A stretch of DNA of 64,000 nt. Source: Capsulimonadaceae bacterium (lineage in GTDB: Bacteria > Armatimonadota > Armatimonadia > Armatimonadales > Capsulimonadaceae). Made by a program: the position numbers and the translations under genes. The notes beneath the pieces were generated by a model. That model saw only the letters and a program-made list of their open reading frames with translations. It was not told the DNA's origin and made no database searches. Location of the stretch: positions 186,001-250,000 of the forward strand of contig JARLGU010000019.1 of NCBI GenBank assembly GCA_031292625.1, given 5' to 3'. Shown here piece after piece: positions 8,277 to 13,259 of this stretch. Each line of letters starts with the position of its first letter. Within the stretch, counting starts at the first letter, position 1.

Positions 8277-10967
8277 CTACCCTTGCGTCGTTCGAGGCGG
8301 CCGGCCGAGCGAGGAACGCTCTCCATCGTTGCGGCGTTCCGCGAGCGCTTCGAGGAACGCGTTCGCCACTTCGGGATCAAACTGCGTGCCAATATTGGCA
8401 CGCACCTCGGCGCAGGCCTGATCGAGATCCATGCCCTTCCGGTAGGGCCGGTCAGTTGTCATTGCGCTGAATGCGTCCGCGACCGCAAGGATTCGTCCGA
8501 CAATCGGGACCTGGTCGCGACGCAAACCGTCAGGATATCCCTTGCCGTCCCAGCGCTCATGATGGCTGCGAATCGCATCGAGCACCATCTCCATGCCGGG
8601 GATCGCCTTCACGATCAACCACCCGAGATGCGTATGCGTCTTCATGACATCGTATTCGGCCTCGGTAAGACGCCCGGGCTTCGCGATGATTTCAGCAGGA
8701 ATGCCGATCTTGCCGACATCGTGCATCAGCCCGCCGATCCGCAAGACTTTCCGCGTCTCCTCGTCAAGATCAAGCTTCTCGGCGATCCAAATTGCGTATT
8801 CGGTAACATCTTCCGAATGGTTTCGCGTGTAGCTGTCCTTATTGTCGATCGCGGTGACGATCGCGTCTAGCGTGCTGAACGTGTCCTGGTCTCGAAGTTC
8901 GCGATTGCGGCGTCGAAAGCCACTGCTCGATGCGATATTATCCGGCAACGCCTTGGCAGAGAAGAGATTGCGATGGATAATCGCCATCAATTCGTGACGA
9001 TTGTTTGCATCGTCGGGCAGCGACGCGACGCCCATGCTCAGCGATACCGGAATTTGCCAAGGGTCGTCGCCGCTTTGCACGGACAACGTCGCCACGCGAT
9101 TGCGGAGCCCGATGGCGAGTTCGATGGCGCGGGCCGTAGTTGCGCCGGGAATGATAATCAGGAACTCGTCGCTTCCATACCGTCCGACGCACATGCTCGG
9201 ATCCGTGTGCTCAACGAGCACGCCGGCAACCGTACTGAGAAGCGTATCGCCGGCCTGGTGGCCATACGTATTGTTGAAGAGCGTAAAGTTGTTGATGTCC
9301 AGCAGAATAGCCGCCAGCGGTTCGTGAGCCTCGTTGGCATGAGTCACAAGATCCGCAAACTGGTGTTGGAGCGCACAGTGATTGAGAACTCCTGTCACCG
9401 CGTCTCGCTGCACGAGTTCGGCGGCGGCCGCAAGTTTGCAGGCGTAGTCGATCGCCGCGCCGACTTCGACTCCGATACTTTCGATCAAGGACACGGCATC
9501 CGCGTCGAATGGCTCTCCCCACGATGCCGCCCCGATCGCTCCGATAATCTGGCCCTGAGAGACGAGCGGGGCGATCAGCAGGTAGCGGCCCGCGATAGTT
9601 GCTTTTACAGGCTTCCTGGCCGCCAGACCCTCTTGGCTCGCGGCGCTCGAGATCAGAGCGAGGATTTTGGCGTGTCGCTCAAAGCCAGTGTGGAAATAGA
9701 CCTCAAACTCGCCGCCGCCGCCCTGATCCAACCAGATTACCGTCGCATCCGCGAACAGCGCCCGGCGCGTGTTCTCGACAGTCGCCTCGGCCAGCGTCTC
9801 GACTGTCTCGCAATCACCCATTTCCCGCGTAAGCCGTTGAAGCGAGTTGAGCTGGTGGTACCTTCGAGCAACTTCGCTTTCCAGAGCCTGATTGAACTCC
9901 TCCAATCGTGTATTCAGCGCCTCGTTTTCACCGAGCTGAACGGCCAACTCCTGAGTTAAGCTGCAGTTCGCAAAGTACGTTACCATCTGGCGGGCGATCA
10001 CGAGGAGCAAGATCGCGAACCCCATGGCCGCGGTCCCCAGGGAAATCGAGCCGTGCAGCGCATAATCGTGCCAAATCGTAACGAACGATGCGATGGATGC
10101 AAGCACATAGGGTGCGATCGCCCCGCGAAAACGACGCAGAGCGTCGTCGACCGCAATCGGACGATCCGGATGCGGCGCGGGTGAATTGCCGCGCCGCCCG
10201 TGCGCCTTAAGGAACGACGCTGTCATCGCCAGCCAGCCGAAACTCCGCACCGCGTCCGTCCAAAGCCCCGTGTGATAAACGCCATTGACGGAGTATACGG
10301 CGTCCACGGTATCCGCAAGCGAGAACATTGCAAGGCCAAGTGCGAGCAGCATGAAAGAATACCGCATCGCTCGACTCAGGCCGCTCGCGGTAACGAGGAT
10401 CAACGCTCCGAAGAGGATAATCAGGTCTCCGAGTTGCAGACCCACAACCAATAGGCGTCCAATAGGGTCGAAGCTCTCGTGCGACCAGAGGTTCCGAAAA
10501 ATATAGTACCAAGTCAGCGCGCCAACACCGCAAGCGAGCACCGCCGCATCAAGGCACAGTCTTGCCCGGCCGGAAAAGGGAATGCTGCCAAAAAGGAGAA
10601 AGACGCCGGCAATCAGCAGTGGATAAGCCGCACCGTAAAACACGTCCGGCGCGCTTACGACCGGCGGGATCGACCAGGTCGACCACTCTGAATAGGTCCA
10701 GACCATCTCTCCGGCGGCCCAAGACAAAGCGCCTGCCGCAAGCAATAACCAGCCGGCTTTCCTGACGCGCCCGCCATGCCGCGTCGTGACGGCAAGCCAG
10801 ACTCCCACGAGGCCCGCCGTAATCGGAGCAACGAACTCGTAGACGTCGAGCCGGACGTAATACGCCATCCGGTTAGCGCTTGCCGCAAACTGGAAGACCG
10901 CATACCCGACGGCGTAGAACAGAATGAATAGTGAGATTACGCGACTTAAAAAACTTCGGAACCTCAT
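8277..10967 (-). CDS. Membrane GAF-GGDEF-HD-GYP cyclic-di-GMP signalling protein
   Basis: An 896-residue protein. About nine N-terminal membrane segments (to about residue 330) form a sensory region, followed by a coiled coil, a GAF-like domain (about 390-515), a GGDEF domain (about 530-680) and an HD-GYP domain (about 700-875). The diguanylate cyclase signature is GSDEF at 598-602 rather than GG(D/E)EF, so cyclase activity is uncertain. The HD-GYP residues are intact: HDVGKIGIP at 749, HHERWDGKGYP near 802, implying cyclic-di-GMP hydrolysis. No Shine-Dalgarno is seen before the ATG at 10967. Likely role: control of motility, surface or envelope behaviour. Confidence 0.9.
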   Translation of the reverse strand: MRFRSFLSRVISLFILFYAVGYAVFQFAASANRMAYYVRLDVYEFVAPITAGLVGVWLAVTTRHGGRVRKAGWLLLAAGALSWAAGEMVWTYSEWSTWSIPPVVSAPDVFYGAAYPLLIAGVFLLFGSIPFSGRARLCLDAAVLACGVGALTWYYIFRNLWSHESFDPIGRLLVVGLQLGDLIILFGALILVTASGLSRAMRYSFMLLALGLAMFSLADTVDAVYSVNGVYHTGLWTDAVRSFGWLAMTASFLKAHGRRGNSPAPHPDRPIAVDDALRRFRGAIAPYVLASIASFVTIWHDYALHGSISLGTAAMGFAILLLVIARQMVTYFANCSLTQELAVQLGENEALNTRLEEFNQALESEVARRYHQLNSLQRLTREMGDCETVETLAEATVENTRRALFADATVIWLDQGGGGEFEVYFHTGFERHAKILALISSAASQEGLAARKPVKATIAGRYLLIAPLVSQGQIIGAIGAASWGEPFDADAVSLIESIGVEVGAAIDYACKLAAAAELVQRDAVTGVLNHCALQHQFADLVTHANEAHEPLAAILLDINNFTLFNNTYGHQAGDTLLSTVAGVLVEHTDPSMCVGRYGSDEFLIIIPGATTARAIELAIGLRNRVATLSVQSGDDPWQIPVSLSMGVASLPDDANNRHELMAIIHRNLFSAKALPDNIASSSGFRRRNRELRDQDTFSTLDAIVTAIDNKDSYTRNHSEDVTEYAIWIAEKLDLDEETRKVLRIGGLMHDVGKIGIPAEIIAKPGRLTEAEYDVMKTHTHLGWLIVKAIPGMEMVLDAIRSHHERWDGKGYPDGLRRDQVPIVGRILAVADAFSAMTTDRPYRKGMDLDQACAEVRANIGTQFDPEVANAFLEALAERRNDGERSSLGRPPRTTQG

Positions 10968-11343
10968 TCGGTTACTTGCTTATCCCAAATTGCCGGGCCA
11001 TAAACGATGCGTCGGGCGAATTGAGGCGGAAATCGCTTCGAGGCGGCCGGCCTAAAGAGTCGGTCGTTGGCGGGCAATGTTGCGCCACACCAAACCCTGT
11101 TATTTCTAACAGTATGAATTATCCATGATTTCCGCTAAATTTGCAGACTAATATATCCTTAATGTTAGCCAGCCCACGTAATTAATATTCTGGCACGCCC
11201 ATCTGGATCGACGGCGCCCAATTAATGACCGCCATGAAACGATACGTTGATATCGTAATTCGGTTTAGCTTGTTGCCGACGAACATTGTGAACACCTCTC
11301 GTCCGTCCCTGTACGCCAAGAGGCGATGCCGCTTTTGCCTCTC

Positions 11344-11480
11344 ACGCCCCTGGACTCCGTAGCGCCCCCGGCGCGTCCGATCTGGGGCGTTTTAGGGCTT
11401 GAGCCGTATGATGCGAAAGTATCGCGTACGGCTCTTAGCGGGCTGGGAGACGGTAACGTCTCCTGGCTACCCGGTTTCAT
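11344..11480 (+). mobile_element. Group II intron 3' fragment (domain IV stub, domain V, domain VI)
   Basis: Domain V is 11401-11434, exactly 34 nt: stem GAGCCGTA/TACGGCTC, a two-base-type bulge near CG, an inner GATGC/GTATC helix and a GAAA tetraloop. Domain VI is 11439-11473: GGAGACG/CGTCTCC capped by GTAA, a basal CGGG/CCCG helix and an unpaired A at 11469 in the position of the branch-point adenosine. Upstream, ACGCCCC (11344-11350) pairs with GGGGCGT (11384-11390) enclosing two smaller helices, a plausible domain IV stub. No reverse transcriptase ORF and no 5' GUGYG end are found upstream, so this is a truncated or ORF-less remnant. The exact 3' splice boundary is uncertain. Confidence 0.85.
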
Positions 11481-11724
11481 ATCAAAGATTGTCACCGGTA
11501 TTGGCGCGGTTTCCGGCCGTGAACGACCGTCCTGAGATGTCAAGCCCCATCAATGGGACTGCTTGATCACGAAAATGCTGGCCGTCTACCGATTAGGCCC
11601 GTTCACGGGCTTTCTCAACACAGGCCGGCCCTTTCAGGACCGGACTCGCGCCGCTGCTAACAGTTATAGACGCGATCGCCCTGCCGTTTGCAACCTTCAG
11701 TAAGGTCATTCGCCTGCGTTGTGT

Positions 11725-11730
11725 TATACT
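11725..11730 (+). promoter_or_regulatory. -10 box of the secreted-protein gene at 11739
   Basis: TATACT is followed after 8 nt by the GTG at 11739, which would make the transcript leaderless or nearly so. The -35 region is weak. AAGAGG at 11731-11736 is too close to the start to act as a ribosome-binding site. Confidence 0.5.
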
Positions 11731-11738
11731 AAGAGGCT

Positions 11739-13259
11739 GTGACAGCGATCCACGTTAAGAAGCTCCTCATTGCACTGCTGACAATAGCCGTCTTGCTCGA
11801 CCTTTCCGGCGGTAGGGTGCCTGCCGGAACCCCGATGGAGACGCCCCCGGTATTCACGCCGCCCGCGACAGTCGAGGCATGGCGCATTCTGATTGACAAC
11901 TCCGCGCGCGGACCAATCAGCGTCAGCACCGACCACGGAAAGACGTGGGAAATCCTGGGGCGGGTGACTCAGCCCGCCAAGTGCAGCCTGCCGGGATACC
12001 TTGCGGCCGGATATGCCCCAATTGGAACCGTTGCCGCAACAGCGGTCCACGGGATCCGGATCCGCGTCGGCGACACGTCCACCGCGTATCCCGAAATGTT
12101 TAACGTCGTGCCGACAGAGTTTGCACAAACCCCGAACTACTTCGGCGGACACATTAGCGGAGACTCGGGGATCTATACCGACATTCCGGCGGGCACATCG
12201 ATCTTTCGTGAGCTAGCGCCATACGTCGGCAGCGCCGTGTTTCTCAAGGGCGCGTTCTCATCCTGGCAGCAAATCCCCACCGGCTATTCGCCAAGGGATG
12301 GCGACGAGATCCAGATCATCGTCCGGCGCCCCGTGGACCCGCTTCGCGAGGTCGACTTTGAAAACAAACCCGGCGGCGATGTCACGGCGACGTTCGGAAG
12401 CGGAAAGAAGATCGTGGTCACCCATGTCGTGCAACCCGTCTCGGGGGTTGGTCGATTCGATGGCTGTTCGTACTCCGGCGTCGGCGCAATCAACACCAAC
12501 CACACGTGCGTCATTACGATTTCGACGGCGCCGATCACGCAAGCGCGCGAGTTGGAAGGAACCGCCAACGCGGAGAAGCGCGGCGGGTTTCAGATTGTCC
12601 CCGTGTATCACAATAGCCAAACCGAGGAAGCCGGTGCGCCGGAGGTCATGATCCTCGGAACCCCTCACGGGAACGTACCGGTACTCGAAGGCACCCCCCC
12701 GCTCTTCTTCGGATACTTCGACCTGGCATGGGATCCCAACGAGCCCAAACATTCCTGGCGCTGCGAGGTGCGAAAAGCAAACGAAACCGCGTGGGAGCCG
12801 ATGCCGACGATCGTCGGGCTCCAACCGGAAGGCATACGCGCCCTCGGCCTCAACGCGTTCCGGCTTATCCGCGAGTACGGCGACGAAGACGGGCGATGGG
12901 TCCGCCATCGCGTCGCGCTCGGCGTCGCAAATTACAACCACCGGCGCGAACAGCTTGCCAGAGCCGGTCAGAACCTCGTCGCGCGCGGAAACGTCCACTT
13001 TAACGCCGCCGAGGGATTGCCATACATTCCCGTCAATACGATGTTCGTCCAATATTACGTCGATGGCGAACTATTCGGATTTACGAACTCCAAGCCGTAC
13101 GACTGGGATTGGAACACGACCCTCGTTGCGGACGGCGAGCACACAGTCGAGGCAAGACTGGTTGACGGCGGAGGATTCTTGCTCGCGTCCAAGAAGACTG
13201 TCTATTGGGTAGATAATATGCACCAGATCGCGCCGATCCCCGGTCAGCCGGGAAGCTAA
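11739..13259 (+). CDS. Secreted protein of unknown function with C-terminal Ig-like region
   Basis: A 506-residue protein beginning at GTG with an N-terminal signal (KKLLIALLTIAVLLDLSGG). The mature part is beta-rich, with no catalytic motif I recognise. The last ~90 residues (VDGELFGFTNSKPYDWDWNT onward, ending with DGEHTVEARLVDGGG) resemble bacterial Ig-like/fibronectin domains that end secreted glycoside hydrolases. A motif STDHGKTW near residue 63 recalls BNR/sialidase-type Asp boxes but occurs once only. It stands alone between the group II intron remnant and a convergent Nudix gene. Leaderless translation is suggested by the promoter position. Confidence 0.65.
   Translation: MTAIHVKKLLIALLTIAVLLDLSGGRVPAGTPMETPPVFTPPATVEAWRILIDNSARGPISVSTDHGKTWEILGRVTQPAKCSLPGYLAAGYAPIGTVAATAVHGIRIRVGDTSTAYPEMFNVVPTEFAQTPNYFGGHISGDSGIYTDIPAGTSIFRELAPYVGSAVFLKGAFSSWQQIPTGYSPRDGDEIQIIVRRPVDPLREVDFENKPGGDVTATFGSGKKIVVTHVVQPVSGVGRFDGCSYSGVGAINTNHTCVITISTAPITQARELEGTANAEKRGGFQIVPVYHNSQTEEAGAPEVMILGTPHGNVPVLEGTPPLFFGYFDLAWDPNEPKHSWRCEVRKANETAWEPMPTIVGLQPEGIRALGLNAFRLIREYGDEDGRWVRHRVALGVANYNHRREQLARAGQNLVARGNVHFNAAEGLPYIPVNTMFVQYYVDGELFGFTNSKPYDWDWNTTLVADGEHTVEARLVDGGGFLLASKKTVYWVDNMHQIAPIPGQPGS

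What the first reader, a model, noticed from the sequence alone, without database searches (positions are those of the whole stretch)
11344..11480. Group II intron remnant: domains V and VI without the rest
The 34-nt domain V, the 35-nt domain VI with a bulged A and GNRA loops are plainly visible. No intron-encoded protein or 5' end exists within the 770-bp gap. Either the intron lost its 5' half, or it is a compact ORF-less form whose domain I lies in the A+T-rich stretch upstream. The promoter and a secreted-protein gene begin about 245 bp downstream.
Basis: seen in the sequence. Interest (0 to 1): 0.58.

Follow-up and report, generated by a model that had tools for sequence, protein, structure and literature searches.

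The report
Decayed group II intron inside transposon
The stretch is the last piece of a dead self-splicing mobile intron that had jumped into the end of a small, many-copied transposon; other scraps of the same intron sit at the same spot in two more places of this genome, so it is mostly ordinary genome debris with an unusual landing site.

Summary
In detail: domains V and VI of a group II intron lie at 11401-11475 (RF00029, 47.5 bits, above Rfam's cut-off), with GAAA and GUAA loops and a bulged A. It is a 5'-truncated remnant, not a compact ORF-less intron: homology to relatives starts near 11378 and no D1-D4 model matches in the gap. At 11476, immediately after the intron's last base, begins a 225-bp MITE-like repeat with 17-bp terminal inverted repeats (TIRs); 44 core copies were found in this genome. 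The window copy lacks exactly its first 17 bp, the outer TIR. Two more scraps of the same intron type sit at the same point: the 5' part (D1, 115.5 bits) directly behind a TIR on contig C33, and about 35 nt of DVI at the opposite end of a MITE on contig C21. So an intron inserted into MITE ends (GCATCTA^T), and all copies seen have decayed. No full-length copy was found. The 'promoter 245 bp downstream' is mostly the MITE. Truncated introns inside mobile elements are common; the MITE-TIR site, used at both ends, is the only mildly new point. Trans-splicing of the two halves is unlikely.

The parts
11378..11400 (+). Probable 3' strand of intron domain IV and the joint to domain V; weak similarity, clear only from about 11392
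   Evidence: Profile of 95 relatives aligns from 11378; relatives share ..GGCTTGAGCC..
11401..11434 (+). Domain V, 34 nt, GAAA loop at 11415-11418, AGC near its start
   Evidence: RF00029 47.5 bits; fold z -4.8
11435..11475 (+). Domain VI and intron 3' end (..CTACCCGGT^), GUAA loop 11453-11456, unpaired candidate branch A at 11469; ends in GU where relatives end in AC or AU
   Evidence: the last 24 nt recur without mismatch on contig C21
11476..11683 (+). MITE-like repeat, consensus positions 18-225; lacks only the outer 17-bp TIR on the intron side
   Evidence: 96.2% to the consensus typed from the copies; 44 core copies in the genome, 0 for the reversed control
11667..11683 (-). Remaining terminal inverted repeat of the MITE (1 mismatch in the 16-base pattern)
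   Evidence: (C46:197667-197682)
11684..11693 (.). Presumed right-hand target-site duplication CCGTTTGCAA; no left-hand partner found
   Evidence: Other copies have flanking repeats of about 10 bp; best match of duplication plus TIR upstream 14 of 27, shuffle mean of maxima 14.2

Best explanation
A mobile group II intron, of the kind whose D1 matches Rfam RF02012, inserted into terminal inverted repeats of a MITE family by reverse splicing at CAGGGCGATCGCATCTA^T. In the window it entered between consensus positions 17 and 18 of one MITE. Later a deletion removed the left flank with the target duplication, the outer TIR, domains I to III, most of IV and any intron protein. That left D4's 3' strand, DV, DVI and the rest of the MITE. 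The remnant can neither splice nor move by itself. Shown: DV/DVI, the exact MITE junction, the missing TIR, two other scraps at the same MITE position. Inferred: insertion by retrohoming, the deletion as the cause of truncation, loss of function.
For: RF00029 match. Profile of relatives stops at 11378. MITE of 44 core copies starts on the base after the intron's end and lacks just 17 bp. C33 has TIR, then the intron 5' end and D1 (RF02012, 115.5 bits; profile 54.7 bits). C21 has a MITE broken off 17 bp before its other end and joined to the intron 3' end, 24 of 24 bases identical. No TIR beside the window's remnant on its 5' side.
Against: No full-length intron of this type and no related IEP was found in the genome, so the source is unseen. 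C33 differs from GUGCG at the first two bases. The 3' end is GU, not AY. EBS1, which would prove targeting, lies in the lost part; a candidate EBS2 on C33 (7 bp, reached by 1.4% of shuffled TIRs) is not at the column used by relatives, so inconclusive. The genome is a draft and the junctions were not checked on reads.
Confidence: 0.8

Rival explanations
1. Incomplete reverse transcription during insertion made a 5'-truncated copy from the start; no later deletion of an entire intron.
For: Two of three scraps (window, C21) keep an exact 3' end and lack the 5' part. Incomplete reverse transcription was proposed for 5'-fragmented introns in PMC7923331 (passages read).
Against: A plain truncated insertion should keep the TIR and duplication on the 5' side; they are not found in the window, and no TIR with up to 2 mismatches is listed beside the C21 scrap on that side. 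C33 lost its 3' side, which this cannot explain.
Confidence: 0.15
2. Compact ORF-less group II intron with its domain I in the 430-bp stretch upstream.
For: Relatives with deleted ORFs exist in the phylum (L008, L014, L022), and the gap is about 430 bp.
Against: No D1-D4 model at E<=10 in 10400-12000; profile of 28 relatives' 5' parts gives no significant match in the window (best E 3.3); the MITE TIR that must flank the 5' end is absent.
Confidence: 0.02
3. Two halves of one split intron (C33 5' part, window 3' part) that splice in trans.
For: The halves are complementary in domains and both border the same MITE position.
Against: The flanking 10 bp differ (cgcatgatgg on C33, CCGTTTGCAA in the window), so they come from different MITE insertions unless flanks were exchanged; EBS1, D2, D3 and an IEP are missing from both; neither half lies in a gene; both intron ends deviate from consensus. 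A review says that no bacterial trans-splicing intron had been reported (PMC4424553, passage).
Confidence: 0.01
4. Circularly permuted group II intron, with D5-D6 upstream of D1-D4.
For: D5-D6 stand alone at the front; such introns exist in bacteria (PMC8637638, passages).
Against: No D1-D4 match downstream: none at gathering threshold in the 64-kb window, none at E<=5 in window 9899-12975 (L001); the downstream sequence is a MITE.
Confidence: 0.01

Closest known systems
Mobile group II introns with RF02012-type D1
   Same: DV/DVI sequence type, 3' end position, 5' end sequence of the C33 scrap
   Different: Relatives keep D1 to D6, many with an IEP of about 570-640 aa; here the intron survives only as scraps; the window copy ends in GU
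5'-fragmented introns H.ha.F1 and H.ha.F2 (PMC7923331, passages read)
   Same: Only the 3' end (DV, DVI) is left, at a repeated recombination-related site
   Different: Those lie in an integron-like array and keep part of the IEP ORF; here the site is a MITE TIR and no ORF part is recognisable
Group II introns at a fixed position in IS elements, e.g. c-Ha.de.I1 in ISPlu15-like IS, RmInt1 in ISRm2011-2 (PMC3522654, PMC4496777, passages read)
   Same: Homing to a repeated mobile element; fragments without full-length counterpart
   Different: Host element here is a non-coding MITE, and the site is its TIR, used at both ends
Group I intron/MITE association in Candidatus Thiomargarita nelsonii (PMC4853749, passages read)
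   Same: A ribozyme intron associated with a MITE
   Different: Group I, not group II

Membership tests
Group II intron (as origin of the remnant) | Domain V of about 34 nt with AGC and GNRA loop | tested here: met
   RF00029 above cut-off; fold
Group II intron (as origin of the remnant) | Domain VI with bulged A 7-8 nt from the 3' end | tested here: met
   A at 11469
Group II intron (as origin of the remnant) | 3' end AY | tested here: not met
   Ends in GU on C46 and C21
Group II intron (as origin of the remnant) | Domains I-IV in the same element | tested here: not met
   a D1 piece is on C33 instead
Group II intron (as origin of the remnant) | 5' end GUGYG | tested here: not met
   Absent in the window; on C33 it reads UCGCG where relatives have GUGCG
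Group II intron (as origin of the remnant) | Self-splicing activity | not testable with these tools
   Needs an assay
ORF-less functional group II intron | Complete D1-D6 without ORF | tested here: not met
Circularly permuted group II intron | D1-D4 downstream of D5-D6 | tested here: not met
MITE (the host repeat) | Short, non-coding, TIRs, many copies | tested here: met
   225 bp, 17-bp TIRs, 44 core copies
MITE (the host repeat) | Target-site duplication | tested here: met
   About 10 bp in many of the copies shown, not all
MITE (the host repeat) | Related autonomous transposon with the same TIRs | not tested
   No transposase was sought
Trans-splicing group II intron | All domains present in separate transcripts, exons in genes | tested here: not met
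   EBS1 region, D2, D3 not found; no gene exons

The most novel reading that the evidence does not exclude
A group II intron lineage specialised on the terminal inverted repeats of a MITE: because the TIR is present at both ends of every copy, one target sequence opened dozens of harmless homing sites, and the intron used both ends before all copies seen were broken.
Probability: 0.5. Interest if true: 0.35.

Novelty: new member of a known kind. Interest (0 to 1): 0.22.

Why it matters
It shows where such an orphan DV/DVI comes from: the empty copies of its host repeat fix the intron's end to the base and reveal other scraps of it. A MITE TIR as homing site would be a cheap, reusable safe haven for an intron. 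The copies also bear on how group II introns die: the RmInt1 paper (PMC4496777, passages) describes fragmentation with loss of the 3' terminus, while two of the three scraps here kept only the 3' end.

Tried and rejected
Phages: no match; plasmids: only the DV region, in 3 records. tblastn of relatives' ORFs against 10901-11480 and C33: nothing better than E 0.025. Codons of an IEP end upstream of DV, which I suspected from one relative, did not hold up. EBS2/IBS2 pairing on C33: inconclusive. For calibration, an EBS1-like pairing with the own exon was found in 14 of 29 relatives against 113 of 810 swapped pairs; EBS2-like in 6 of 29 against 86 of 810. An RNA-family match to a snoRNA upstream (18.9 bits, cut-off 46) was dropped as chance. 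Of the 90 TIR hits, 32 had neither a core nor a partner; 24 of these were read and only C33:82661 runs into an intron; 8 were not read. Papers: passages read in PMC3522654, PMC4424553, PMC7923331, PMC8637638, PMC4853749, PMC4496777, PMC6053426, PMC6542083 and PMC9769881; all others seen in listings only. Six searches showed no group II intron in a MITE TIR in the titles, abstract starts and passages that I read; the library lacks most subscription journals.

Full report
Observation. A scan of the window with all Rfam families gives one match at gathering threshold: RF00029 Intron_gpII at 11399-11475, + strand, 47.5 bits. DV (11401-11434) and DVI (11435-11475) each fold better than 200 of 200 dinucleotide shuffles. 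The A at 11469 is unpaired and lies 7 nt from the intron end. Relatives in the phylum share the stretch GGCTTGAGCCG or nearly so and end in CTACTCGAC, TTACCCGAC or TTACCCAAT, which puts the end of this intron at 11475.

How much intron is left. A profile of about 240 nt around DV/DVI from 95 relatives aligns with 11378-11480 at 57.0 bits and not further upstream. No D1-D4 family matches 10400-12000 at E<=10, and blastn of 10968-11398 against relatives gives one hit of 18 nt. ORF 8277-10967 on the minus strand is a GAF-GGDEF-HD protein that starts at 10967. In three relatives (L008, L014, L022) the D1 match starts about 0.7 to 0.95 kb upstream of DV, which here would fall inside that gene. So the window holds a 5'-truncated remnant of about 85-100 nt.

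The insertion site. A DNA search of the window's genome with the gap sequence found five further copies of the part from about 11477 on, at 90-94% identity; no other of the 101 genomes searched matched in that part. A core pattern found 44 copies with up to 3 mismatches, none for the reversed control. Alignments show an element of 225 bp with 17-bp terminal inverted repeats (CAGGGCGATCGCATCTA) and, in many copies, identical flanks of about 10 bp; I call it a MITE without having looked for its transposase. The window copy covers consensus positions 18-225 (11476-11683, 96.2%). It begins on the base after the intron's end and lacks just the outer TIR. The TIR with its duplication is not upstream: the best match is 14 of 27, while the mean maximum of 300 shuffles is 14.2, and a genome-wide TIR search with up to 2 mismatches lists only 11667-11682 near the remnant.

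Other scraps. RF02012 (group-II-D1D4-7) has one match in the genome, C33:82449-82600, minus strand, 115.5 bits. Just 5' of it is a perfect TIR, then TCGCGACACGATGTCGCG, which aligns with the 5' end GTGCGACACGAAGTCGC of L008 and L022 except for the first two bases and one further base. A profile from 28 relatives matches C33 from model position 3, 54.7 bits, E 1.2e-16 among the five stretches searched, and ends within D1. No DV or RT was detected there; a DUF4886 gene begins about 315 bp behind the TIR. On C21 a MITE (consensus positions 1-208) is broken off exactly 17 bp before its other end, and the sequence joined there is the last part of DVI, 24 of 24 bases identical to the window over GGTAACGTCTCCTGGCTACCCGGT. 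That pattern, with up to 3 mismatches, occurs twice in the genome, on C21 and C46, and not at all in the control. All three scraps therefore touch a MITE at the same place, the inner edge of a TIR, and both ends of the MITE have been used. (C33 keeps only the TIR, so which MITE end it was cannot be told.) All 44 core copies were in the loci given to (58 loci in all); among the rows printed only the window and C21 end in the intron. Some copies differ slightly at the site (for instance L081 and L273), which I did not interpret.

Are the halves one broken intron? The 10 bp next to the C33 TIR (cgcatgatgg) and next to the window MITE (CCGTTTGCAA) do not agree, so they come from different MITE insertions, unless recombination between MITEs has exchanged flanks. 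Together they still lack the EBS1 region, D2, D3 and an IEP. In the genome, RVT_1 is found only on C34 and C12, and GIIM only on C12. C34 carries an intron with a different D1-D4 type (RF02005). I therefore give trans-splicing about 1%.

Mechanism. Best reading: an intron RNA with its protein reverse-spliced into MITE TIRs, and the copies then decayed by deletions. The protein may have been encoded by copies now lost or not assembled (the genome is a draft of 65 contigs, 96.4% complete). The identical non-canonical GU end on C46 and C21, at opposite MITE ends, suggests that the change was already in the source copy; this is inference. Deletion rather than incomplete reverse transcription is favoured because the target side is gone as well. 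I could not show targeting by base pairing: the EBS1 region is lost, and the EBS2 candidate on C33 is inconclusive.

Comparison. [quoted passage not shown] Introns at fixed positions in IS elements, and fragments without a full-length counterpart in the same genome, are described in PMC3522654 (passages). [quoted passage not shown] A group I intron/MITE association is described in PMC4853749 (passages). So this is a new member of a known kind; a MITE TIR as homing site is the only point I did not meet in six searches.

Noticed in passing
G000 contig C12:139279-139979 (L002, L004): A second 5'-truncated group II intron of another type: a 202-aa ORF with part of RVT_1 and GIIM, followed by DV/DVI (43.4 bits).
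   Followed up: partly
G000 contig C34, L003:734-2652: An apparently complete group II intron (RF02005 D1-D4, 164.4 bits; 420-aa RT ORF) whose DV/DVI, visible by eye after the ORF, is not caught by RF00029.
   Followed up: partly
   Followed up: no
C41 MITE, L081 (C41:50022-50247): A MITE copy reading CATCTATCGCGATATC instead of CATCTATTCATATC at the intron site; its TCGCGA equals the first six bases of the C33 intron piece. Chance or an excision scar.
   Followed up: no
   Followed up: no
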